From an uncultured Bacillota bacterium (GTDB lineage: Bacteria > Bacillota_I > Bacilli_A > RF39 > UBA660): a DNA stretch of 38,722 nt. The notes below the pieces were generated by a model. That model ran no database searches, had not been told where the DNA came from, and saw nothing but the letters and a program-made list of their open reading frames with translations. Shown here one piece after another: positions 973-28,521 of this stretch; the stretch's first letter is position 1; each line of letters opens with the position of its first letter. Location: positions 1 through 38,722 of the forward strand of contig ONIZ01000021.1 in assembly GCA_900317975.1 (NCBI GenBank), in the 5' to 3' direction. The position numbers were made by a program, and so were the translations under genes.

Positions 973-1599
973 ATGAAAAAAACAAAGTTTATATTAATTA
1001 TTATTTTTATACTTTTTCTTACAGGATGTAGCTCAAATTATGATTTAAACCTTGATACAGACTCAATTGATGAAAAACTTACTATTAATATGTCTAAAGA
1101 AGAGTATATGGAAAACTATGATACACTTATTTCAAATAAGAGTGTTTTTGATGATAATAGTGTCTTTTATGATATAGATATTATAGATAATGTAGATAAT
1201 TATTTAGTCACATATAGTCATAGTTATAATCATGAAGACTATTTTAATTCTTTAAATTTAAATAGTTGTTTTAATGAGATATATCATGATATTGATAGTA
1301 ACCAAGAAACTATTAATCTTGTTGGTTTTAATTGTTTGCAAGGAGACAGTTTAAGAGTAATAGTTGATAGTAAATATAAGATTTATAATAGTAACGCTCA
1401 TATAGTTAATGGTAATAAGAATATATGGGATATAGATTCAAATAATAAAGATAATATTAATATAAGCTTTGTAGTTGATTATAATAAGACATATTTTAAT
1501 AAAGATTTAGTTCTATCTGTTATATTAATAATAGTTTTAATATGTTTAGTTGCCATCTTATTTAAAAAGAAGAAAAAAGTTAGGAGGAAAAAAGTATGA
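973..1599 (+). CDS. Putative lipoprotein with C-terminal transmembrane anchor
   Basis: This 208-residue protein begins with a lipoprotein-type signal (LTGC, Cys19). The middle (about 22-175) is acidic, Asp/Asn/Tyr-rich and predicted extracellular. Near the C-terminus is a hydrophobic segment (about 178-197) followed by a very basic tail (KKKKKVRRKKV). The protein would therefore be attached at both ends: lipid at the N-terminus, membrane helix at the C-terminus with the tail in the cytoplasm. I do not recognise the extracellular domain. Its last codons overlap the start of the next gene by four bases (ATGA), so the two are almost certainly translationally coupled. Shine-Dalgarno AAAGGGAAA lies at 961-969. 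Confidence 0.65.
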   Translation: MKKTKFILIIIFILFLTGCSSNYDLNLDTDSIDEKLTINMSKEEYMENYDTLISNKSVFDDNSVFYDIDIIDNVDNYLVTYSHSYNHEDYFNSLNLNSCFNEIYHDIDSNQETINLVGFNCLQGDSLRVIVDSKYKIYNSNAHIVNGNKNIWDIDSNNKDNINISFVVDYNKTYFNKDLVLSVILIIVLICLVAILFKKKKKVRRKKV

Positions 1600-2522
1600 T
1601 TTTATATTCGTGTAATGATTATGCTATTCTCCCATTAATAAAAATATTGAAAAATATATTATTAGTAATACAAATATTAGCTCCAATCTTATTAATAATT
1701 AGTGCTAGTATGATTATTCTTAAATCTATTGGTTCTGATATGAATGATGAAAAAAAGAGTAAAAAAAAGATTTTTAATGCTTTCATTGCTTGTATAATAA
1801 TATTTTTGATTCCAACTATAGTTAATATTACATTAGACGCAGTTGGGAATGGTATTGGAGGTCTAAACTTTTCTGTAGCTAATTGTTGGGCAGCAGCAGA
1901 AAATTATAATATTAAAGCTACTCCTAGATATATCAAAAAAACAAATAAAGACAATGGTAAAGAACCAACTAAAGTATATATAGACCCTGAAGATTATCCT
2001 AAAGGTAGTACTGGTGTAAATCCAAATAAACAAGGATTAAATGGTAATTATCAACAACAACTAGTTCAAGTAGCAAGAAGCCAAATAGGAGTTGGTTATC
2101 ACACTATGCATTATGGACCAAAAGGATCAGGCGACGAAGGGTTTGGTTGTGCTATGTTTGTTTCATACTGCTATAACCAGGTATTTTTTGGAGGAAAAAG
2201 CGGACAAGACAGAAATGAAGGTGCTTTCTATGGAAGTACTTATGAGTATTGGGGTAATGTTACCAGAGATGGATATAATCCATGGAACAAAACTTTTGTA
2301 GAAGTAAGCTATTCTGAAGCTCAAGCAGGAGATGTAATGGCTTTTGTTAACTGCAGTGATCCATATAGTAGTTATTCTTGTTGTTATCATGTAGGATTAT
2401 ATATAGGAGATGGACATTATATAGATTCTTCAGGTAGTGGAACTTCTGGAGTAGGAGTTTCTGAGCATGATAGCGTTCCATCTAGTGGAGTACACTATTT
2501 GAGATATACAGGAGTGTCATAA
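1596..2522 (+). CDS. Membrane-anchored NlpC/P60 hydrolase with VirB2/TrbC-like N-terminus
   Basis: The 308-residue product has two parts. Residues about 10-85 contain two hydrophobic helices separated by a short Lys/Asp/Ser-rich loop (DMNDEKKSKKK). This layout resembles the small pilin-like VirB2/TrbC membrane proteins. After a Pro/Lys/Gly-rich linker (about 105-148), residues about 150-305 form an NlpC/P60 cysteine peptidase domain. The nucleophile is Cys185 in FGCAMFVSYC, and the likely catalytic His is His265 in CYHVGLYIGDG; a downstream polar residue would complete the triad. Such enzymes cut peptide stems of peptidoglycan outside the cell. The gene overlaps the preceding lipoprotein gene by four bases and ends at a strong terminator. 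The NlpC/P60 assignment is firm. The VirB2-like label rests on topology. Confidence 0.8.
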   Translation: MILYSCNDYAILPLIKILKNILLVIQILAPILLIISASMIILKSIGSDMNDEKKSKKKIFNAFIACIIIFLIPTIVNITLDAVGNGIGGLNFSVANCWAAAENYNIKATPRYIKKTNKDNGKEPTKVYIDPEDYPKGSTGVNPNKQGLNGNYQQQLVQVARSQIGVGYHTMHYGPKGSGDEGFGCAMFVSYCYNQVFFGGKSGQDRNEGAFYGSTYEYWGNVTRDGYNPWNKTFVEVSYSEAQAGDVMAFVNCSDPYSSYSCCYHVGLYIGDGHYIDSSGSGTSGVGVSEHDSVPSSGVHYLRYTGVS

Positions 2523-3025: not shown

Positions 3026-3066
3026 AATAGAGAAGACAATAATATTGAAATAATTTTTCTTAGAAA

Positions 3067-3219
3067 AATCATCATTTAGTTATGTTATAAGCACAAAAAT
3101 TAGGATTAGAGAGAGTACTTTTAGATTGTGATGTTAATAATGTTGCATCAGATAAAACGTTAAAAGTACTAGGTGGAGAATTAGAAAGAACAGAAGTAGA
3201 TTCTTATGATGGATTATAA
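3067..3219 (+). pseudogene. GNAT acetyltransferase C-terminal remnant
   Basis: The 323-base gap between the flavodoxin-like gene and the adhesin is not empty. From 3091 to a TAA at 3217-3219 one frame reads AQKLGLERVLLDCDVNN and then VASDKTLKVLGGELER. This matches the end of a GNAT N-acetyltransferase: the helix after the acetyl-CoA site, the beta strand, the N-x-x-S motif, then GG. The same frame continues upstream as HLVML but is interrupted by TAA at 3088-3090, and no start or N-terminal half is present. It is a 5'-truncated, stop-interrupted relic. The remainder of the gap holds a 9-bp inverted repeat (3241-3249 with 3255-3263) and the adhesin promoter. Confidence 0.65.
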
Positions 3220-3312
3220 CAAATATTAATTGGAATATTGTTAATGATATATTTTATCATTAAAAAAAATATCTAAAAATCAAAAAAAACTTTAAAAATA
3301 CATAAAAATTGA

Positions 3313-3342
3313 TATAATAAAAGCAAGATAATAACAGGAGAT
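3313..3342 (+). promoter_or_regulatory. -10 box and Shine-Dalgarno of the adhesin gene
   Basis: TATAAT lies at 3313-3318 and CAGGAGA at 3335-3341, eight bases before the ATG at 3349. A weak TTTAAA at 3291-3296 could be the -35, with a 16-base spacer. Confidence 0.5.
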
Positions 3343-3348
3343 AGAATT

Positions 3349-6300
3349 ATGTTGAAAAAAAATCAAATAATTGCTTTTGTAGCTTTTATATTATTTATTC
3401 CTATGTTGTTTTTAACAAAAACAAATATTTTTTCTTTGAAAAACATTAATAAAAAAACTGGATTATATGATATAAAAGACTATTTAGTAAATGTTAATAT
3501 TGATGCACCTAAAAATTTAGAGGGTGAATATATTATTGTAAGCGGAACTCAATATACAGTTAGCTTAAGATTTGAAGAGAAAAAAGGCAAGCAATTTCCA
3601 AATGATGGAGAAATGTATTATGAATTACCTAGTGGCTTAAATGTTATAGAATCACAACAATCAAGATTCTTTGATATAATGGTTCGAAGTGGTGATGAAA
3701 ATATTGTTATACATAATAACAGTATTAGAATAGAAAATGGAAAAATATATATAAGATGGGCAATGGAAGATCCTAATATAGAAGCATTATTCAATAAGAA
3801 AAATGTATATTTCTATATAGATTTTAAATGTATGTTTGATGAAACAACACAGATAATAAAATTCAATGATAATATAGATGTTACACTAACTTTTGATAAT
3901 GAAAATAATATTTCTATAGATAAAGAAAGCATAGTATCAAATTATGAAGAAGGTAGAATAAAATATTATGTTACCATTGAATCTCACGGAAATAATAGAG
4001 ACGTTATCATAACTGATAATTTAGTTGGCAATAATTTTGAACTATTACCATATAGTTTTACTGCAACTTCCAATTTAAATTCAGGTGACCAATGGAGCCA
4101 TTCAATTGTTGGGAATAGCTATAAATATATTATTCCATCTATGAGCAATGGAGAGGTTATTACAATTTCATATGAAGTTATTGTAAAACCTTCAGTAAGA
4201 GAGATTTCTTTAGAACAACCATATCTAATTGAAAAAATACATAATGATGTTAGTGTTAGAAGTTCTACAAATGATAATGTTAATACTGATAGTATAGAAA
4301 ATGAAATAACATTTAGACCTAAAATATCTAAAACACAAGGAAGATTGTTATCTAAAGAAGAAGATAAAGAAATTGTAGAGTGGAATATAATAATTAATGA
4401 TGACAATTTATTTGATATTACAGGACTAACAGTAAAAGATATTATTAATGTGCCTGAACGTGAATATATGAAAATGTCAGGTGAAGGAATAAGAGTATAC
4501 GTATATGATACTAATTCTCACTTAATAGATACTTATGAAGTACCATGGGATAATGATAGTCTAACAAAAAATGATTATAGTTGGGAATATATGATACCTG
4601 ATACGTATAATGATGAACTATATTCATATACAATCAGTTATATAACTGAAGTAGACAAATCAGAAATTGAAGAAACAATAAGATTATACAATACTGCATA
4701 TTTTGAAGAAGAAACTAGTTCAAATTATTATGAAACTATTAAATCTTCAACAAACATATTAGAAATAGATAAGAATGCAAAAGAAATAGATCTAAAAAAT
4801 AATGAAGTAACATGGGAGATTAGTATTGATGTTCCTGAAAATGGTATATCACCAGCAACTATGGTTGATACGCTGCCTGGAAAATATAATACTTATACAT
4901 CATCATTTATGTATGATGATTATATAGATGGTAGTTTGACCGTTGACAACTTGATTGGTGAAGAAAATTATGATTTATCTCTAGAGGGAAATAGACTAAC
5001 AATTGATTTTTATAAGGACAGAGAAAAAACAGAAAAAGGCTTATTTGGATTCCCTAATGGTAGAAGAATTATAATAAGATTAAAAACTAAAATAAATCAA
5101 GAATGGGTAAATATGGTTAATACAGCTAGTGACTACTCAGGACACACTAACTATGTTGATTTTGAAGGTAAAAATGACAATGCTAGTGTTATAATCTCAC
5201 CTAAAAAACTTGAAAAGAAAGTTGAAAAAGTCAGTGAAATTATAGAAGGTGTCGAATATGAGGCATATAGATATGATATAATTTTCAGCAACATTACTGA
5301 GGATACATTTGAAATAGAGGATATATTTGATACTGAGTTGCTAGGCTTGTTAAAAGAAGGATACATTGGAAAAATATCTGTATGTGGTGGAAATATATAT
5401 TATCAAGGCGATTGTATTGATAACCAAATTAACTATATTAATACTAGTTCAGGTATAAAATTTATTTTTCAGCCTAGTGATTTAAAAAAAGATATTAATG
5501 GTAATTATTACCCATCTTATAGGCTATCTTATTCTTTGATTCCTAAAAATTCAGCTGCAATAAACAAATTAAATGAATATGCTGCAAAAGAGGTAGATGG
5601 AATTTATAATATACAAAACACTGCAGAGTGGGGTGGATTAACAGCAACTGCAAATGCAGAATACATATATAATGGCTTTTCAAAGCAATTAGAAGATGAT
5701 AATAATGGTGAAGATGATTATTATACATTCACACTAAATATAAATCCTAGTGGAAAATATATGAATAATAAAAATGAACTTGAAATTCATGATATATATG
5801 AAAATATGAGTGTTGATTTTAGTAGTATTAATATAAATCCATCAGAAGGAGTCAGTTATTATAGTAGTGGTTATGAGTTAATATTTACTATACCTGATGG
5901 ACAACCGACTACAATTACATATAGAGCCAAAGCACTCTTTGATGAGGGGGCAAGTGAAGGCGATAGCGTTAGAATATCTAACACAGCATATATTAAAGAC
6001 TTAGGATATGAACAGTCTACATCAAAAGTAGTAGAAAAGTCTATTTCTGGTGGAGGAGGAGCATCTGACTATTATCTAGACATAATCAAAGTAGAAGGAG
6101 AAAACTTTTTAAATAGACTAGAAGGTGCATCATTTGATTTTTATGATTCTGATCATAATTACATTACAACACTTACTACTGACAATGACGGAAAAATAAG
6201 AATATTATTTGAAAACACAGACTTTTACGATTTTGAGGTTGATAAAAATTATTATTTTAAAGAAAAAACACCTCCAAGAGGTTACAAGAAGATTAATACT

Positions 6301-8142
6301 GAATATAGATTTAAAGTTTCAAGTGATGGCTATATTAATTATTCTGATTATACATACACTTCAGGAGATTGGGTAACTGTAAAAAATTATAAAGAAGAAA
6401 TGACAGAATTAACAATAATAAAAGAATGGGACGATGACAATAATCAAAAAGGAAAAAGACCAAACAGCATTGACATGACATTAAGTAATGGTGATATAGT
6501 TACATTAAGCGAAGCAAATGGATGGACAAGTACAATTGAAGTACCTAAATATGATTCTAACAATAATTTAATTGAATATACGTGGAGTGAACCTATTATT
6601 AGTGGTTATGAAAAGGTAGATGAGAAAGTAGTTGGAGGAATAACTACTATAACAAATAGTCTCTTAGATGAAAAAACATCATTCTCCATAGAAAAGATAG
6701 ACTCATCTGACTCAGAAAAATTTTTAGCAGGAGCAGAGTTTGGATTGTATATTGTCAATCTAGATGATGATGCTAATATTGTAAGTGATTCTCTATTAGC
6801 AAATGGAACTACACAACCGGATGGGACTATTACATTTAACGACTTAGATATGTTTACTGAAAATAACAATGGGCAATTATATTATTTTGTAGAAACTAAT
6901 GCTCCAGAAGGATATGAACTAGATGAATTAAAATATTATTTTATATTGTATGATGGGGGAAGTACTACCGCACAACAAAGGGCGTGGGTATTTGATGATA
7001 CAGTATCTATAATAAACGATATTGTTGTTAGAACTTTCACTAATGATTATACTTATACTTTCCCTAATAATATAAAACAAAATACAGTTGCAATAGATGT
7101 TAATAAGATATGGGCTGATAATAATAACCAAGACGGAATCAGACCAGAATCAATAACATTCACATTGTTAAAGAATGGAACTACTATAGCTGATAAAACT
7201 TGTACAGCAAATGCATCAAAGAGTTGGTCATGCACAATAGATAATTTAGATGAATATGAAAATGGTGAAAAAATTAATTATTCCATCGGTGAATTAGATT
7301 TAATTAATGGATATGAAACAGGTAGTGCTGTATCTATAGGAAACAACTCATTTAGTATTACTAATGTACATGAGCCAGAAACAACAGAAGCTACAGTAAC
7401 TAAAGTATGGGATGACGCTAATAACCAAGATGGTATTAGACCAACATCAATCACAATGCAATTATTAGCTGATGGAGAAGAAGTAGAAGGAAAAACAGTA
7501 ACCCTAACAAATGATAAATTAACAGATACAATAAGTGGACTTCCAAAATACAATAATGGAGCAGAAATAGTGTATACATGGGGTGAAAGTACATTACCTG
7601 AAGGTTATGAAATGACTTCAAATGTAACAAACGAAGAAATAACTACAATAACAAATACACACATTCCAGAAACAACAGAGGTAACAGTAACTAAAGTATG
7701 GGCTGATAATAATAACCAAGATGGAATCAGACCAGAGTCAATAACATTCACATTGTTAAAGAATGGAACTACTATAGCTGATAAAACTTGTACAGCAAAT
7801 GCATCAACGAGTTGGTCATGCACAATAGATAATTTAGATGAATATGAAAATGGTGAAAAAATTAATTATTCCATCGGTGAATTAGATTTAATTGATGGAT
7901 ATGAAACAGGTAATGCTATTTCTATAGGAAACAATTCATTTAGTATTACTAATGTACATGAGCCAGAAACAACAGAGGCAACAATAACAAAAGTATGGGA
8001 AGATGAAGACGACCAAGATGGAATCAGACCAGAATCAATTACAATGCAATTACTAGCTGGTGGAGAAGAAGTAGAAGGAAAAACAGTAACCCTAACAAAT
8101 GATAAATTAACAGATACAATAACAAGTAACCCTAACAAATGA
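3349..8142 (+). CDS. Giant SpaA/Cna_B-repeat surface adhesin, 5' part of a frameshifted gene
   Basis: This 1,597-residue open frame encodes an exported protein. Residues 5-22 form a signal-peptide core. Residues about 40-890 are a series of beta-rich adhesin-type domains (repeating VEWNIII, VTWEISI and YRYDIIF starts, as in collagen-adhesin and SdrG-like stalks). Residues about 907-997 and 1111-1205 look like SpaA domains with E-box-like motifs (FKEKTPPRGY, FVETNAPEGY). Cna_B domains follow at about 1018-1105 and from 1245 onwards. Cna_B domains usually self-crosslink through a Lys-Asn isopeptide bond; the VTKVW lysine, the YTWSE/YSIGE glutamate and the ITN asparagine fit that scheme. Reading stops at 8142 because of a 40-bp tandem duplication. 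The product as it stands lacks a wall anchor and would be released or unstable. Confidence 0.85.
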   Translation: MLKKNQIIAFVAFILFIPMLFLTKTNIFSLKNINKKTGLYDIKDYLVNVNIDAPKNLEGEYIIVSGTQYTVSLRFEEKKGKQFPNDGEMYYELPSGLNVIESQQSRFFDIMVRSGDENIVIHNNSIRIENGKIYIRWAMEDPNIEALFNKKNVYFYIDFKCMFDETTQIIKFNDNIDVTLTFDNENNISIDKESIVSNYEEGRIKYYVTIESHGNNRDVIITDNLVGNNFELLPYSFTATSNLNSGDQWSHSIVGNSYKYIIPSMSNGEVITISYEVIVKPSVREISLEQPYLIEKIHNDVSVRSSTNDNVNTDSIENEITFRPKISKTQGRLLSKEEDKEIVEWNIIINDDNLFDITGLTVKDIINVPEREYMKMSGEGIRVYVYDTNSHLIDTYEVPWDNDSLTKNDYSWEYMIPDTYNDELYSYTISYITEVDKSEIEETIRLYNTAYFEEETSSNYYETIKSSTNILEIDKNAKEIDLKNNEVTWEISIDVPENGISPATMVDTLPGKYNTYTSSFMYDDYIDGSLTVDNLIGEENYDLSLEGNRLTIDFYKDREKTEKGLFGFPNGRRIIIRLKTKINQEWVNMVNTASDYSGHTNYVDFEGKNDNASVIISPKKLEKKVEKVSEIIEGVEYEAYRYDIIFSNITEDTFEIEDIFDTELLGLLKEGYIGKISVCGGNIYYQGDCIDNQINYINTSSGIKFIFQPSDLKKDINGNYYPSYRLSYSLIPKNSAAINKLNEYAAKEVDGIYNIQNTAEWGGLTATANAEYIYNGFSKQLEDDNNGEDDYYTFTLNINPSGKYMNNKNELEIHDIYENMSVDFSSININPSEGVSYYSSGYELIFTIPDGQPTTITYRAKALFDEGASEGDSVRISNTAYIKDLGYEQSTSKVVEKSISGGGGASDYYLDIIKVEGENFLNRLEGASFDFYDSDHNYITTLTTDNDGKIRILFENTDFYDFEVDKNYYFKEKTPPRGYKKINTEYRFKVSSDGYINYSDYTYTSGDWVTVKNYKEEMTELTIIKEWDDDNNQKGKRPNSIDMTLSNGDIVTLSEANGWTSTIEVPKYDSNNNLIEYTWSEPIISGYEKVDEKVVGGITTITNSLLDEKTSFSIEKIDSSDSEKFLAGAEFGLYIVNLDDDANIVSDSLLANGTTQPDGTITFNDLDMFTENNNGQLYYFVETNAPEGYELDELKYYFILYDGGSTTAQQRAWVFDDTVSIINDIVVRTFTNDYTYTFPNNIKQNTVAIDVNKIWADNNNQDGIRPESITFTLLKNGTTIADKTCTANASKSWSCTIDNLDEYENGEKINYSIGELDLINGYETGSAVSIGNNSFSITNVHEPETTEATVTKVWDDANNQDGIRPTSITMQLLADGEEVEGKTVTLTNDKLTDTISGLPKYNNGAEIVYTWGESTLPEGYEMTSNVTNEEITTITNTHIPETTEVTVTKVWADNNNQDGIRPESITFTLLKNGTTIADKTCTANASTSWSCTIDNLDEYENGEKINYSIGELDLIDGYETGNAISIGNNSFSITNVHEPETTEATITKVWEDEDDQDGIRPESITMQLLAGGEEVEGKTVTLTNDKLTDTITSNPNK

Positions 8143-8164
8143 TAAATTAACAGATACAATAACA
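8085..8164 (+). repeat. Exact 40-bp tandem duplication that shifts the adhesin frame
   Basis: Bases 8085-8124 and 8125-8164 are identical. Forty is not a multiple of three, so the second copy moves translation out of frame and it ends at TGA 8140-8142. The other type B repeats carry a single copy, and removing 40 bases restores the 294-base domain spacing (334 minus 40). Confidence 0.9.
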
Positions 8165-8503
8165 GGATTACCAAAATACAATAAGAGTACAACACCAATT
8201 GAATATACATGGAGTGAATCTACATTACCTGAAGGTTATGAAATGACTTCAAATGTAACAAATGGAGAAATAACTACAATAACAAATACACACATTCCAG
8301 AAACAACAGAGGCAACAATAACAAAAGTATGGGATGACGCTAATAACCAAGATGGTATTAGACCAACATCAATTACAATGCAATTACTAGCTGATGGAGA
8401 AGAAGTAGAAGGAAAAACAGTAACCCTAACAAATGATAAATTAACAGATACAATAACAGGATTACCAAAATACAATAAGAGTACAACTCCAATATGGATT
8501 TAA
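8125..8503 (+). pseudogene. Adhesin middle fragment (one and a half Cna_B domains, out of frame)
   Basis: In the frame 40 bases on, the coding sequence resumes at once: the end of one type B domain (GLPKYNKSTTPIEYTWSE, then ITNTHIPE) and most of another. It runs into a stop at 8501-8503 after TTPIWI. The ATG at 8243 is internal and has no Shine-Dalgarno, so this is not an independent gene. At 8490-8496 the sequence jumps from a type B domain to the last third of a type A domain (DLIEGYE), changing frame again. Comparison with the sister repeats suggests about 19 bases (encoding EYTWSE) are missing at the joint. The 278-base spacing would become 297 if they were restored. Confidence 0.75.
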
Positions 8504-9528
8504 TTGAAGGTTATGAAGCAAGTTCTGCTGTTTCTATAGGTGATAATTCATTTAGCATTACTAATGTACACACTCCTGCAAAAACCACATTCAATGTTAA
8601 TAAAATCTGGGCTGATAAAAACAATCAAGATGGAAAACGTCCTAATTCCATAACAGTACATCTATTAGCTGATGGAACTGTTATAAAAGACTATACACTA
8701 GATGAAAGTAATAATTGGATGCATACATTTGAAAATTTGGACAAATATAATAATGGTAAACAAATTGTATATTCCGTAATAGAAGAAAATATTGATTATT
8801 ATTCTACTTCTATTTCAGGAGGAACTATAACAAATACTTATGCTCCTGAAAAAACATCTTATACAGTCATAAAAAGATGGGAAGATGCAAATGATCAAGA
8901 TGGAATAAGACCAGATTCTATAAATATTGCATTGTTAGCTAATGGAGAAGAGGTAGAAGAAATAGAACTTACTTCAGAAAAAGGATGGACACATACTTTT
9001 TCAAATCTAGACAAATATAGTAGTGGAGAGTTAATAGAATATTCAGTTAAAGAAAAAACATCGATAAATGGATATACTTCAGAAATATCAGGAAATACAA
9101 TTATTAATCAGCACACTCCAAAATTAATAAATATATCAGGAAAGAAAACGTGGGATGATCAAGATGATTATAGAAAACTAAGACCTAAAAAAATAACTAT
9201 ATGTTTATATGCTGATGGTATTAAACAAACATGTAAAGATATATCGATTGACGATAATTGGGAATATACATTTAATGATTTACCAAAGTTTAATAGAGGC
9301 ATAGAAATAAATTATTCACTAGTAGAAGAACCTGTCGAATACTATAAAGCCGAAATAGATGGATATAATATTACAAATAAATACACTCCAAAGGAAAATT
9401 CAAATGATAATAGGCCTTCTATAAACAACCCTGTTACAAAAGATAAATCTATTATAGTAATAATAATTACTTCTATTTCATATATTGGCTATATTTTATT
9501 TAGATTTAAAAAGAAATTGGTTAAATAG
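8494..9528 (+). pseudogene. Adhesin C-terminal fragment with cell-wall sorting region
   Basis: This segment is the end of the same adhesin, back in the original frame: the tail of a type A Cna_B domain, three complete divergent Cna_B domains (from about 8590, 8860 and 9127), and an Asn/Ser/Lys linker. The C-terminus is of sorting-signal shape: NPVTKD, then a hydrophobic helix (IIVIIITSISYIGYILF), then the basic tail RFKKKLVK. A canonical LPxTG is absent. NPVTKD resembles the NPxTxD variants seen in some gut Firmicutes surface proteins. The fragment has no Shine-Dalgarno or promoter of its own, and the ATG at 8494 is a by-product of the break. Without repair of both upstream lesions this anchor is not joined to the adhesin. 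Confidence 0.75.
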
Positions 9529-9542
9529 TTATTATACTAAAC

Positions 9543-9575
9543 AAAAGAGATTCATTTATGTGAATCTCTTTTTGA
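9543..9575. terminator. Bidirectional terminator between the convergent adhesin and flippase-like genes
   Basis: A perfect 12-bp stem pairs 9543-9554 with 9561-9572 around a 6-base loop, with T tracts on both strands. The minus-strand stop codon (9552-9554) lies within the stem. Confidence 0.85.
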
Positions 9576-10574
9576 TATTTTAATACTAGTTATTAAAACA
9601 ACTATTAAGTTAATCATTACAAATACATAGAATGATACCCCTCTATGTAATAATAATGCATTATGTAATAATACTTCAGGATATATATATGAATAAATTA
9701 ATAAGAATACTGTTTCACTAATCCCAACAGATCCAGGTAAAGGAATACAAGACACAGTACAGAATAGTATTGCTTGTAATGAAATAACATATAAAATATT
9801 AAAATCATTTAATCCAAAAGATCTATATATAAAGTATGCAACACTATAATTAACTAGAACTTGTGATATAGCAATCAAAATAGCTTTAACAAATTCTTTT
9901 TTATGTGTTTTTATATACTTAGAACTCTTATGAAATAGTTCTAATTCATCATTTATTTTCTTATCTATTTCTTTATAATTTTTAAGTTTAAATAATTTTA
10001 GTATTTTTTTAACTAAATTAACTAATTTATTAGTGATTCTCTTAGAAAATATAAGAACAAAATATAAAAGTAAAACAATCAAATCAAATGATAAACCAAT
10101 AACAAATAATAATACTATTTTAGTTTGAAATATAATTGGATTAAGTATTGCACATATTATTCCTATAGAAACAATACTAAATTGATGACCTAATAAATGT
10201 ATTAATAATGCTAATGTAGAATGAGATACTTTAACTCCATCTTTCTTAGATAAATAATACACCTGCATTGGTTGACCACCACTCGAAGCAGGAGTAATAG
10301 CACTAAAGAAAGCGCCAATTAATGTTGAATTAAATGTTTGCTTTAGAGTAATCTTTTCACCAAAAGAATTCAAAATATTTTTAACATTTATAGCTTCTAA
10401 TAAATAGAAACAAATCATCAATAGAAAACCAATAAAAACATATATCAAATTTACATATTTTAAATTATCTATCAATGAATAAATATCTTGATCTTTAAAA
10501 ATAATATAATATGTTCCAATAAATAAAACCGAGAAAAAAATAAAGTTTATTATTAATTTTTTTTTGTCTTTCAT
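9552..10574 (-). CDS. Flippase-like integral membrane protein (LPG_synthase_TM/UPF0104 family)
   Basis: The 340-residue protein has about eight hydrophobic helices. It carries two hallmarks of the lysylphosphatidylglycerol-synthase transmembrane (flippase-like, YbhN/AglD-type) family: TPASSGGQPMQVYYLSKKDG (about 96-115) and CIPLPGSVGISETVFLL (about 277-293). In MprF this domain moves aminoacylated lipids across the membrane. Here the soluble aminoacyl-transferase domain of MprF is missing, so the substrate is open; stand-alone members are thought to move lipid-linked molecules or act with a glycosyltransferase. It is transcribed alone, converging on the adhesin and diverging from the PRPP synthetase gene. 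ATG at 10574 is chosen because it follows the promoter and a weak GGTG. Confidence 0.8.
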   Translation of the reverse strand: MKDKKKLIINFIFFSVLFIGTYYIIFKDQDIYSLIDNLKYVNLIYVFIGFLLMICFYLLEAINVKNILNSFGEKITLKQTFNSTLIGAFFSAITPASSGGQPMQVYYLSKKDGVKVSHSTLALLIHLLGHQFSIVSIGIICAILNPIIFQTKIVLLFVIGLSFDLIVLLLYFVLIFSKRITNKLVNLVKKILKLFKLKNYKEIDKKINDELELFHKSSKYIKTHKKEFVKAILIAISQVLVNYSVAYFIYRSFGLNDFNILYVISLQAILFCTVSCIPLPGSVGISETVFLLIYSYIYPEVLLHNALLLHRGVSFYVFVMINLIVVLITSIKISKRDSHK

Positions 10575-21836: not shown

Positions 21837-22826
21837 ATGGAAGAAGAAAACAAAGTAGTAGAAGAAGATAACTTAGTTGAAAATAATGTAGCTGAAGAAA
21901 ATAATGTAGCTGAAGAAAATAATGTAGCTGAAGAAAATAATGTAGCTGAAGAAAATAATGTAGCTGAAGAAAATAATGTAGTCGAAGAAAATAATGTGGT
22001 CGAAGAAAATAATGGTGTTGAGGAAGAAAATATCGAAGTACAAGAAAATAGTTCAACTGAAGAAATAAATAATGTTGAAGAAACAAATATAGAAGAAAGT
22101 AATGTAGTTGAAAATGATAAAACTAAAGAAAACGAAAAAGAATCAGAATCAAAAGGATCTAAAGTTATATATATAATAGTAATAACAGTAATAGTTTTAC
22201 TTATTTTAGGTCTAATAGGAGTATTAGTTTACTTTAATACATCGAATGAGATAAAAGATGATACTGTAACAGAAAAAAAGCCTAAAGAAGTTGTAGATAC
22301 AAATAAGTATGAAGTATCTAATAATTGGAAAGAATATGTAGTTTCTGTATTTAATAAAACTATTAAATTACCAACAACATATGAAAGAGTAGAAGCTTTA
22401 TCTGGATTCAAATTAGACTCAACTAATTCAAAAAACTACATGAGAGCAAATTCTAATGATATAGTAAATTTATATGTAGATGATAAATTAGCTTTATATG
22501 TATATGTTAAAAATGATAAAGATGAAGAAATTGAGTATACAAATTCAAAAGTCATAGGTATCTGGCAATCTAAATATGAAGTAGAAACTAATCATGTTGA
22601 GAAAATTGTATTTCCAGGAAACATAGTAGTTGGACAAGACATGAATAGAGATACATTAGTATCATTATTTGGAGAACCAAGTGATGTTAGAAATACTAAT
22701 CTAGAAAACTATGTTACAGAAGATTATTACTATTATGAAGATGAAAAATCTATAACAGAAAAATATTATAGAATTACAGTAGTTAATGGGAAAATATCAG
22801 ATATTTATTTAGTAACTGAAAAATAA
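21837..22826 (+). CDS. Single-pass membrane protein with acidic hexapeptide repeats
   Basis: The 329-residue protein starts without a signal peptide. Residues 1-100 are extremely acidic and Asn-rich, including eight hexapeptides of the NNVAEE type. A helix at about 107-131 (VIYIIVITVIVLLILGLIGVLVYF), preceded by KGSK, should place the repeats in the cytoplasm and the C-terminal 200 residues outside. The extracellular part ends with a segment (GQDMNRDTLVSLFGEPSD, then YYYYEDEK, then YRITVVNGKISDIYLV) that recalls small BamE/SmpA-like or BLIP-like folds (G-x-x-x-x-x-V-x-x-x-x-G-x-P). That resemblance is only suggestive. Shine-Dalgarno GGAGG lies at 21827-21831. It is likely in an operon with the HEYNH gene. 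The function is unknown. Confidence 0.65.
   Translation: MEEENKVVEEDNLVENNVAEENNVAEENNVAEENNVAEENNVAEENNVVEENNVVEENNGVEEENIEVQENSSTEEINNVEETNIEESNVVENDKTKENEKESESKGSKVIYIIVITVIVLLILGLIGVLVYFNTSNEIKDDTVTEKKPKEVVDTNKYEVSNNWKEYVVSVFNKTIKLPTTYERVEALSGFKLDSTNSKNYMRANSNDIVNLYVDDKLALYVYVKNDKDEEIEYTNSKVIGIWQSKYEVETNHVEKIVFPGNIVVGQDMNRDTLVSLFGEPSDVRNTNLENYVTEDYYYYEDEKSITEKYYRITVVNGKISDIYLVTEK
21882..22025 (+). repeat. Eight 18-bp tandem repeats (NNVAEE-type)
   Basis: Five consecutive units from 21882 to 21971 encode NNVAEE with the same bases. Two NNVVEE units (21972-22007) and one NNGVEE (22008-22025) follow with a few substitutions. The unit is a multiple of three, so changes in copy number keep the frame. 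Confidence 0.9.
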
Positions 22827-25673: not shown

Positions 25674-25692
25674 TATAATACAAAAGCGAGGT
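25674..25692 (+). promoter_or_regulatory. uvrA -10 box and Shine-Dalgarno
   Basis: TATAAT at 25674-25679 begins four bases after the terminator T run. GCGAGGTG at 25685-25692 fixes the start at ATG 25700. The in-frame GTG at 25691 overlaps that site and is not preferred. Confidence 0.55.
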
Positions 25693-25699
25693 GTTCAAT

Positions 25700-28521
25700 A
25701 TGGATAAAATAATTATTAAAGGAGCAAGAGAGAATAATCTTAAAAATGTAGATATAGAACTTCCTAAAAATAAAATGATTGTTATGACAGGTTTATCAGG
25801 TTCAGGTAAATCTTCTTTAGCGTTCGATACAATTTATGCTGAAGGCGAAAGAAGATATGTAGAATCTTTATCAGCATATGCAAGACAATTCTTAGGAAAT
25901 TCTAACAAACCAGACGTAGATTCTATTGAAGGATTATCTCCATCAATATCAATAGATCAAAAGACAACTTCTAATAATCCTAGATCAACTGTAGGAACAG
26001 TTACAGAAATATACGATTATTTAAGATTATTATTTGCAAGAGTTGGAACTCCATATTGTCCAAATCATAACATTCCAATTACTTCTCAAAGTGTAGAAGA
26101 AATGACTAATAAAATTTTAGAATATCCTGAAGGTACTAAACTAATAGTAATGGCTCCTGTTGTTCATGGTGAAAAAGGAACACAAAAAGATTTATTAGAA
26201 ACACTTCAAAAAGAAGGATATGTAAGAGTAAATATAGATGGAGAAACTCATGATTTATCAGAGGAATTAAATCTAGATAAAAATAAAAAACACAATATAT
26301 CAGTAATAATAGATCGTTTAGTAATAAAAGAAGGCGTGCGTTCAAGATTATTTGAAGCATTAGAGACATCAACTAAATTAGCATCTGGAAAAGTAGTAAT
26401 TAAAACTATGGGAGACGATTCTAAAGAAATAGTTATGTCAGAATCATTTGCCTGTCCATATTGTGAATTTTCTCTTCCAGAGTTAGAACCACGTCTATTT
26501 AGTTTTAATGCACCATACGGAGCTTGTCCTGATTGTAAAGGATTAGGAGTAAAACTACAAATGGACCCAGAACTAGTTGTTCCAGATCAATCATTAAGTA
26601 TAATTGATGGTTGCATTAAACCTTATGGAGATGAAGTAGAAAATATCTATTACATGAAATTATTATGTTTATGTAAGCATTATAAAATAGATACAACAAA
26701 ACCATTTTCTAAATTAACAAAAAAAGAAAAAGAACTAATCTTTTATGGAAGTGAAGAACCAATTCATATTAAATATACAACTAGAGGAGGAAATACTACT
26801 GATACATATGATTATTATGAAGGAGTACTAACTAATCTAGAAAGAAGATATATGGAAACATCATCTACATGGGTAAGAGAATGGTTAGAAAGATACATGA
26901 TTGAAACAGAATGTGATACATGTCATGGAGCAAGATTAAATGATGATGTACTACAAGTTAAAGTAGGAAAGAAAAATATTTTTGAAGTAACAAAAATGTC
27001 TATAAAAGATTTAATTCCTTTCTTTAATAATTTAAAATTAACTAAAGAAAAACAAGAAATCGCAACTTTACTTTTAAAAGAAATAATAGATAGATTAGAT
27101 TTCTTATCAAATGTAGGATTAGGTTATCTAACACTAAGTAGAAGTGCAGGTACTCTATCAGGAGGAGAAGCTGAGAAGCTCAAAGAATTAGACTTGCTAC
27201 ACAAATAGGATCTCACTTAACAGGAGTACTTTATGTATTAGATGAACCATCAATTGGTCTTCATCAAAAAGATAATCAAAAATTAATTGATTCAATGTTA
27301 AAGATGAGAGATTTAGGAAATACATTAATCGTAGTAGAACACGATGAAGATACAATGAGGGCATGTGACTATTTAGTAGATATAGGACCAGGCGCAGGAG
27401 ATGCAGGAGGAGAAATAATCGCAGCAGGTACACCTGAAGAAGTAATGAAAAATGAAAAAAGTATTACAGGACAATACTTAAGTGGAAAAAAGAAAATAGA
27501 AGTACCTAAGACTAGAAGAAAAGGTATAAAGAAGTATTTAAAAATTAAAGGTGCAGAAGAACATAATCTAAAAAATATTGATGTGGATATTCCTCTAGGA
27601 ACATTTACTTGTGTAACAGGAGTATCAGGCTCAGGAAAATCATCTCTAATAACAGAAATACTTTGTAAAGCAATCTCAAAGGAATTATATAAATCAAAAG
27701 AAAAACCTGGAAAATACAAAAAAATTCTAGGAATAGAAAATATAGATAAAATAGTAGTAATTTCACAAAATCCAATAGGAAGAACTCCAAGATCAAATCC
27801 AGCAACTTATACAGGAGTATTTGATGATATTAGAGAATTATTTACTACTACAAAAGAAGCTAAAATGCAAGGTTTTGAAAAGAATAGATTTTCATTTAAC
27901 GTAAAAGGAGGAAGATGTGAAGCATGTCGTGGAGATGGAGTAAAGAAAATAGAAATGCATTTTCTTCCAGATGTTTATGTACCTTGTGAAGTATGTCATG
28001 GTACAAGATATAATAGAGAAACACTAAATATAAAATATAAAGGAAAAAATATAGCAGAAGTACTTGATATGAGAGTTAGTGAAGCCCTTGAATTTTTTGA
28101 AAATGTTCCTAAAATAAAACATAAACTTCAGGTATTAAACGATGTTGGATTAGGCTACATTAAACTAGGACAAAGTGCTCCAACTCTATCGGGAGGAGAA
28201 GCAGAAAGAGTAAAACTTGCTAAAGAATTACAAAAGAAGCCTACTGGTAAGTCACTATTTGTACTAGATGAACCTACTACAGGTCTTCATACTGATGATA
28301 TATCTCGTCTTATTGCAATTTTACAGAAAATAGTAGATAATAAAGATACAATCATAGTTATAGAACATAATTTAGATGTTATAAAAGTAGCTGACTATAT
28401 CATCGATTTAGGACCAGATGGAGGAGATGAAGGAGGAGAGATTGTCGCAACAGGAACTCCAGAAGAAGTCTCTAAAGTAAAAGGTTCTTATACCGGTGAA
28501 TACTTAAAGAAGGTATTGTAA
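25700..28521 (+). pseudogene. uvrA: Excinuclease ABC subunit A, frameshifted by an 8-bp duplication
   Basis: UvrA is the damage-sensing ATPase of nucleotide excision repair. Frame 1 (25700-27208) holds Walker A of the first nucleotide-binding domain ([12 protein letters not shown]), the UvrB-binding region, the first zinc module (CPYC...CPDC) and the signature LSGGEA. It then goes wrong ([11 protein letters not shown], stop). The correct continuation [15 protein letters not shown] is present from 27181 in another frame and runs to 28521 with the second Walker A (GVSGSGKSS), a zinc finger (CEAC...CEVC), a second [12 protein letters not shown] and DEPTTGLH. An 8-bp tandem duplication at 27165-27180 is the whole cause: without it the gene encodes 937 residues, the normal size. 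As read, full-length UvrA is not made. Real mutation, phase variation or sequencing/assembly error are all possible. Confidence 0.93.
27165..27180 (+). repeat. 8-bp tandem duplication in uvrA
   Basis: GAGAAGCT occurs twice back to back (27165-27172, 27173-27180), inside the codons for the first ABC signature LSGGEAQR. Deleting either copy restores the reading frame and the canonical motif. Confidence 0.95.

What the first reader, a model, noticed from the sequence alone, without database searches (positions are those of the whole stretch)
8085..8164. Adhesin truncated by an exact 40-bp tandem duplication within a Cna_B domain
Seen: two identical 40-bp copies. The domain spacing is 334 instead of 294 bases, and the second copy brings a stop at 8140-8142. 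The product would lose its last domains and its wall anchor. Exact short duplications in a repetitive surface gene are a classic route to phase or antigenic variation, but repeated DNA is also where short-read assembly fails.
Basis: partly seen in the sequence, partly recalled or inferred. Interest (0 to 1): 0.6.

Follow-up and report, generated by a model that had tools for sequence, protein, structure and literature searches.

The report
Probable assembly misjoin in adhesin gene
The exact 40-base duplication that cuts this surface-protein gene short is in the sequence record, but the same genome assembly also shows gyrA, pcrA and uvrA broken by similar joins, so it is most likely an assembly error and not an on/off switch.

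Summary
Observation confirmed: 8085-8124 and 8125-8164 are identical 40-mers, unit spacing is 334 instead of about 294, and TGA 8140-8142 ends a 1597-aa ORF before its last Cna_B units and anchor. Outside the two breaks, 369 bp apart, the gene is open in one common frame.

The window belongs to a fragmented MAG (103 contigs, 7% contamination) whose contig ends share exactly 99 bp, as in a k=99 short-read assembly. The same assembly has frame-breaking duplications or deletions in uvrA (same contig), the only gyrA, the only pcrA and a lectin gene: 4 breaks in 273 orthologue alignments against 0 in 359 for genus-mates. Its other short exact duplications also have almost no junction homology, unlike those of genus-mates.

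Best reading: two local misjoins in a repeat array; the organism's gene is probably intact. A real mutation is not excluded, because no reads or other strains were available. Phase variation has no positive support.

The parts
3349..8142 (+). Upstream ORF (1597 aa): signal-peptide-like start, large unique region, SpaA and Cna_B domains; ends at the stop brought by the duplication
7099..7980 (+). Regular part of the Cna_B array: alternating A- and B-type units A1 (7099), B1 (7393), A2 (7687), about 294 bp each; A1 and A2 are 95% identical over 300 bp
7981..8314 (+). B2 unit, 334 bp long because of the 40-bp duplication
8085..8124 (+). 40-mer, copy 1
8125..8164 (+). 40-mer, copy 2, exact and adjacent; shifts the frame by +1
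8140..8142 (+). TGA stop in the frame of the 3349 ORF
8419..8458 (+). Third identical 40-mer, in the following B3 unit; B3 shares 64 bp with the left side and 69 bp with the right side of the junction
8315..8493 (+). B3 unit, broken off after about 179 bp
8493..8494 (+). Second abnormal join: B-type unit fused to the C-terminal half of an A-type unit; spacing 278 instead of 294; brings back the frame of the 3349 ORF
8494..9528 (+). Downstream ORF in the same frame as the 3349 ORF: rest of an A-type unit and three Cna_B stretches, then the anchor; no ribosome-binding site seen upstream, so probably the 3' part of the same gene
9427..9528 (+). NPVTKD motif + hydrophobic stretch + KKK: probable sortase-type wall anchor (inferred)
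   Evidence: six sortase matches over the Pfam cut-off elsewhere in the genome
27165..27180 (+). Comparison lesion on the same contig: exact 8-bp tandem duplication (GAGAAGCT) breaking uvrA (25691-27208 / 27295-28521)

Best explanation
The gene is an ordinary sortase-anchored repeat adhesin (SpaA/Cna_B stalk) of an uncultured small-genome bacterium. The 40-bp duplication, and the second break at 8493/8494, are most likely local misjoins of a low-quality short-read metagenome assembly, placed where near-identical Cna_B units make the assembly ambiguous. Proposed step (inferred, not shown): two assembled pieces whose ends overlapped by 40 bp were put end to end without merging, which leaves an exact tandem duplication with no junction homology; where the pieces did not overlap, sequence is missing, as at 8493/8494. 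The gene in the organism is then probably uninterrupted, with an array that may differ in unit number from the one shown.
For: (1) Same assembly, same kind of damage in genes that should not be broken: uvrA in this window (8-bp exact duplication; 940-944 aa open frames in three genus-mates); the only gyrA-type gene, 97% identical in its first 395 residues to the neighbour's gyrA, lacks sequence and changes frame; the only pcrA lacks bases and changes frame; a lectin-domain gene lacks over 100 bp. That is 4 loci in 273 orthologue alignments (269 kb) against 0 in 359 (354 kb) for genus-mates. (2) Exact duplications in 725 kb of this assembly (40, 27, 22, 22, 71 bp, plus 8 in uvrA) have 0-2 bp beyond two copies; the uvrA, addA and L137 ones are single-copy in the neighbour genome. 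In 1.15 Mb of genus-mates the few comparable ones have 5 or more bp beyond two copies. (3) Contig ends share exactly 99 bp in many pairs, and other pairs share only 38 or 68 bp, i.e. ends of the type needed for such joins exist. (4) Two breaks 369 bp apart, inside the repeat array, with the segment between them open in its own frame and no other damage in 6.2 kb. (5) Published work ties inflated frameshift counts to low assembly quality (PMC11017572).
Against: A de Bruijn assembler cannot by itself create an adjacency that is in no read, and no k-mer over 13 bp crossing either junction occurs elsewhere in the sequence sampled; so a post-assembly join, chimeric reads or a real variant must be assumed. 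No Ns mark scaffold joins in the stretches read. Real tandem duplications in repeat adhesins do occur. The statistics are small (4 against 0), and the homology threshold was chosen after seeing the data. The exact software step is unknown.
Confidence: 0.7

Rival explanations
1. A real, recent loss-of-function allele: replication slippage or template switching duplicated 40 bp, truncating the adhesin so that it is secreted or degraded instead of anchored; the second break is a further lesion of a dying accessory gene.
For: De Bruijn logic requires the junction to be in reads. The junction can be written as a slip through the shared AACAG pentamer plus one extra base. The gene is accessory: the syntenic neighbour has only about 0.57 kb where the window has 6.4 kb, and its N-terminal part has no orthologue among the 192 other family genomes searched, only weak SpaA-region matches.
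Against: Two breaks within 370 bp but no other decay in 6.2 kb. Same-type breaks in gyrA and pcrA, which cannot all be real losses.
Confidence: 0.22
2. A reversible phase-variation state, like the reversible duplications in pneumococcal capsule genes: the 40-bp duplication turns the anchored adhesin off and its precise loss turns it on again.
For: Same anatomy (exact short duplication, frame shift, surface product) as the capsule cases cited in PMC4243769 and PMC2995930. The frames around it are still open.
Against: No second allele seen. Losing the 40 bp would not by itself give an uninterrupted gene, because the break at 8493/8494 also changes frame. Misjoins in housekeeping genes explain the data without it.
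Confidence: 0.05
3. The MAG is a mixture of close strains and the contig is a chimera of two alleles of the array, each real in its own strain, with the junctions lying where the alleles were spliced.
For: 7% contamination; 1.9 Mb against 1.3-1.6 Mb in the more complete genus-mates; the two junctions lie where repeat units match.
Against: No second allele of the gene in the assembly. Splicing at shared k-mers would not leave homology-free junctions.
Confidence: 0.03

Closest known systems
Spurious pseudogenes and false duplications from assembly (PMC11017572; duplicated overlapping contigs, PMC2864568)
   Same: Frame breaks in excess in one assembly, in conserved genes; duplication where two contig ends overlap and are not merged
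   Different: Those studies treat isolate and vertebrate assemblies; here it is a MAG, the duplications are only 8-71 bp, and the software step is not identified
Phase variation by spontaneous sequence duplication in pneumococcal capsule genes cap3A, cap8E, tts (Waite et al. 2001, 2003, cited in PMC4243769 and PMC2995930)
   Same: Short sequence duplication within an ORF of a surface trait, breaking it
   Different: Reversion is reported there; here no second allele was seen, and there is a second frame-changing break
SpaA/Cna_B repeat adhesins anchored by sortase
   Same: Tandem Cna_B units, SpaA domains, C-terminal anchor-like end, sortase genes in the genome
   Different: Anchor motif NPVTKD rather than canonical LPxTG; gene interrupted in this record

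Membership tests
SpaA/Cna_B surface adhesin | Cna_B and SpaA domains over the curated cut-off | tested here: met
   PF05738 3.9e-79 (five stretches) and PF17802 9.1e-22 upstream; PF05738 3e-74 (three stretches) downstream
SpaA/Cna_B surface adhesin | C-terminal sortase anchor and a sortase in the genome | tested here: inconclusive
   NPVTKD + hydrophobic stretch + KKK in the downstream ORF, six sortase matches over the cut-off in the genome; motif not canonical and cleavage untested
Phase variation by reversible tandem duplication | Exact tandem duplication that breaks an ORF | tested here: met
Phase variation by reversible tandem duplication | Single-copy allele coexisting in the population or found in related strains | tested here: inconclusive
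   only one allele in the assembly; junction absent from genome contigs; no strain-level data held
Phase variation by reversible tandem duplication | Loss of the duplication alone gives the full ORF | tested here: not met
   a second frame-changing break at 8493/8494
Assembly artefact | Excess of similar breaks in conserved genes of the same assembly | tested here: met
   4 loci in 273 orthologues against 0 in 359 in genus-mates; gyrA, pcrA, uvrA identified
Assembly artefact | Short-read de Bruijn assembly with repeats near k | tested here: met
   exact 99-bp contig-end overlaps; exact repeats of 64-85 bp in the array, and B3 matches the two sides of the junction over an unbroken 93 bp
Assembly artefact | Junction not supported by original reads | not testable with these tools
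   no reads available

The most novel reading that the evidence does not exclude
The duplication is real and part of an on/off switch: recombination and slippage in the alternating Cna_B array of an uncultured bacterium generate truncated, unanchored adhesin variants at high frequency.
Probability: 0.05. Interest if true: 0.4.

Novelty: not a real feature. Interest (0 to 1): 0.1.

Why it matters
Mainly as a warning: in this MAG, truncated ORFs and small tandem duplications should not be read as biology, since gyrA and pcrA look broken too. If the duplication were real it would be one more case of a known mechanism, adhesin variation by short duplications, in an uncultured lineage.

Tried and rejected
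Junction 32-mer in genome contigs (no hit) and 37 bp of the 40-mer in viral contigs (no hit): no independent allele. The N-terminal 1017 aa has no orthologue among 192 other family genomes, only weak SpaA-region matches, so no allele-level comparison was possible. General excess of 8-12 bp duplications in this genome: not found, rates similar to genus-mates, so no hypermutator signature at that size. De Bruijn collapse through a shared k-mer as the direct cause: rejected, because crossing matches are at most 12-13 bp, like ordinary positions. Independent expression of ORF 8494-9528: rejected, no ribosome-binding site at 8494, which lies at the abnormal join. Loss of repair genes (uvrA, pcrA, addA end) making the duplications real: considered and rejected, because the break in gyrA cannot be a viable loss and the hits are simply long conserved genes.

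Full report
WHAT IS THERE. Positions 8085-8124 and 8125-8164 are identical and adjacent, with the 40-base period ending exactly at two copies. The 40-mer and its relatives occur four times in the window, all in B-type Cna_B units (7497 with 2 mismatches; 8085, 8125, 8419 exact), where shuffles give none. Homologous positions of the repeat units are spaced 291, 297, 334, 278. The ORF from 3349 ends at TGA 8140-8142 in the second copy after 1597 aa; SpaA and Cna_B domains precede it, and three more Cna_B stretches and an anchor-like end (NPVTKD, hydrophobic stretch, KKK) lie in ORF 8494-9528.

WHAT WAS MISSED. A second break lies at 8493/8494. The third B-type unit stops after CTCCAAT and runs straight into the C-terminal half of an A-type unit; the spacing is 278. 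The regular order is A, B, A, B; here it becomes A, B, A, B (duplication), B (broken), A (tail). The segment between the two breaks, 8125-8493, is open in its own frame but out of frame with both flanks, and the flanks share one frame (3349 and 8494). So an otherwise clean gene has been hit twice within 369 bp, and the rest of 6.2 kb shows no decay.

THE ASSEMBLY. The window is one contig of a MAG of 1,906,511 bases in 103 contigs with 99.7% completeness and 7.1% contamination. Ends of several contigs share exactly 99 bp, and a few pairs share 38, 68 or 95-98. That is the mark of a de Bruijn assembly at k=99, hence short reads (inference). The array holds exact repeats of up to 85 bp, and the third B-type unit matches the left side of the junction over 64 bp and the right side over 69 bp, an unbroken 93 bp in that unit, close to k.

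THE TEST THAT DECIDES MOST. If the break were special to the adhesin, housekeeping genes should be whole. They are not. Proteins of three genus-mates were aligned to 725 kb of this assembly: 273 good orthologues, 269 kb, with 4 loci where the match jumps frame. Reverse and control directions gave 0 in 359 orthologues, 354 kb (if breaks fell at random by length, the chance of 4-0 is about 0.035, and queries are partly redundant). The four loci are uvrA in this very window (an exact 8-bp tandem duplication at 27165-27180; 940-944 aa frames in genus-mates), a gyrA equivalog that is the only close copy (the other full-length match is 38% identical and probably parC), the only pcrA and a lectin-domain gene. 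GyrA is essential and PcrA is essential in related Bacillota (general knowledge), so at least these breaks are almost certainly errors of the record.

THE KIND OF JUNCTION. Exact duplications of 20 bp or more and about two copies in this assembly are 40, 27, 22, 22 and 71 bp with 0, 0, 2, 2 and 1 bp beyond two copies, and a 60-bp in-frame one with 3; the 8-bp one in uvrA has 0. The uvrA, addA (22 bp) and L137 (27 bp) duplications are single-copy in the neighbour genome. In 1.15 Mb of genus-mates the comparable cases have 5, 7 and 24 bp beyond two copies, as expected of duplications formed through short repeats. The threshold was set after seeing the data. Duplications without junction homology next to deletions with little or none are what joining overlapping or non-overlapping contig ends without merging would give; I infer this and have not shown it. 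A de Bruijn step alone cannot make such a junction: no shared k-mer above 13 bp crosses it. This is the main weakness of the artefact reading, and why a real allele keeps about a quarter of the probability.

BIOLOGY OF THE GENE. The adhesin is accessory. The syntenic neighbour, at 81-93% DNA identity, has about 0.57 kb between the flanking genes where the window has 6.4 kb (window 3077-9543 against L159 11570-11005), and its N-terminal part has no orthologue in 192 other family genomes. A paralogue on contig C40 is an open frame of 2429 aa ending in a PPNTG-type anchor, and six sortase matches pass the Pfam cut-off. So uninterrupted relatives of this kind of protein exist in the same genome.

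COMPARISON WITH KNOWN SWITCHES. Spontaneous duplications in capsule genes cap3A, cap8E and tts of pneumococcus switch the capsule off reversibly (cited in PMC4243769 and PMC2995930). The anatomy is similar, but loss of the 40 bp here would not give an uninterrupted gene because of the second break, and no other allele was found. Inflated counts of frameshifted genes are a published sign of poor assemblies (PMC11017572).

VERDICT. Observation confirmed; feature most likely not real in the organism (0.7). Interest low.

Noticed in passing
window 25691-28521: uvrA split into two ORFs by an exact 8-bp tandem duplication (27165-27180); genus-mates have 940-944 aa open frames.
   Followed up: yes
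L089 (G000:C26) about 10180-10275: gyrA equivalog lacks roughly 15-40 codons and changes frame; no other close copy in the assembly.
   Followed up: yes
L139 (G000:C58) about 3053-3068: pcrA helicase gene loses bases and changes frame; no other copy in the assembly.
   Followed up: yes
L131 (G000:C50) about 6477: Lectin-domain protein gene lacks over 100 bp relative to the genus-mate and changes frame.
   Followed up: partly
L086 6628-6673; L059 666-711; L137 9450-9503; L057 4009-4151: Further exact tandem duplications (22, 22, 27, 71 bp), at the 3' end of addA, at a ribosome-binding site and start codon, in a coding stretch, and between genes; the addA and L137 ones are single-copy in the neighbour genome.
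   Followed up: partly
window 3077-9543: The adhesin gene is absent from the syntenic place in genus-mate G002, which has about 0.57 kb there.
   Followed up: partly
window 21843-22032: In-frame 18-bp repeat array (about 9.7 copies) at the start of ORF 21837-22826; a candidate for length variation, or for collapse in assembly.
   Followed up: no
L049 (G000:C6, 11365 bp): Whole contig with an 85-bp terminal direct repeat: probably a circular element.
   Followed up: no
window 1596-2522: Protein with NlpC/P60 domain and a weak, below cut-off T4SS-pilin-like N-terminus.
   Followed up: no
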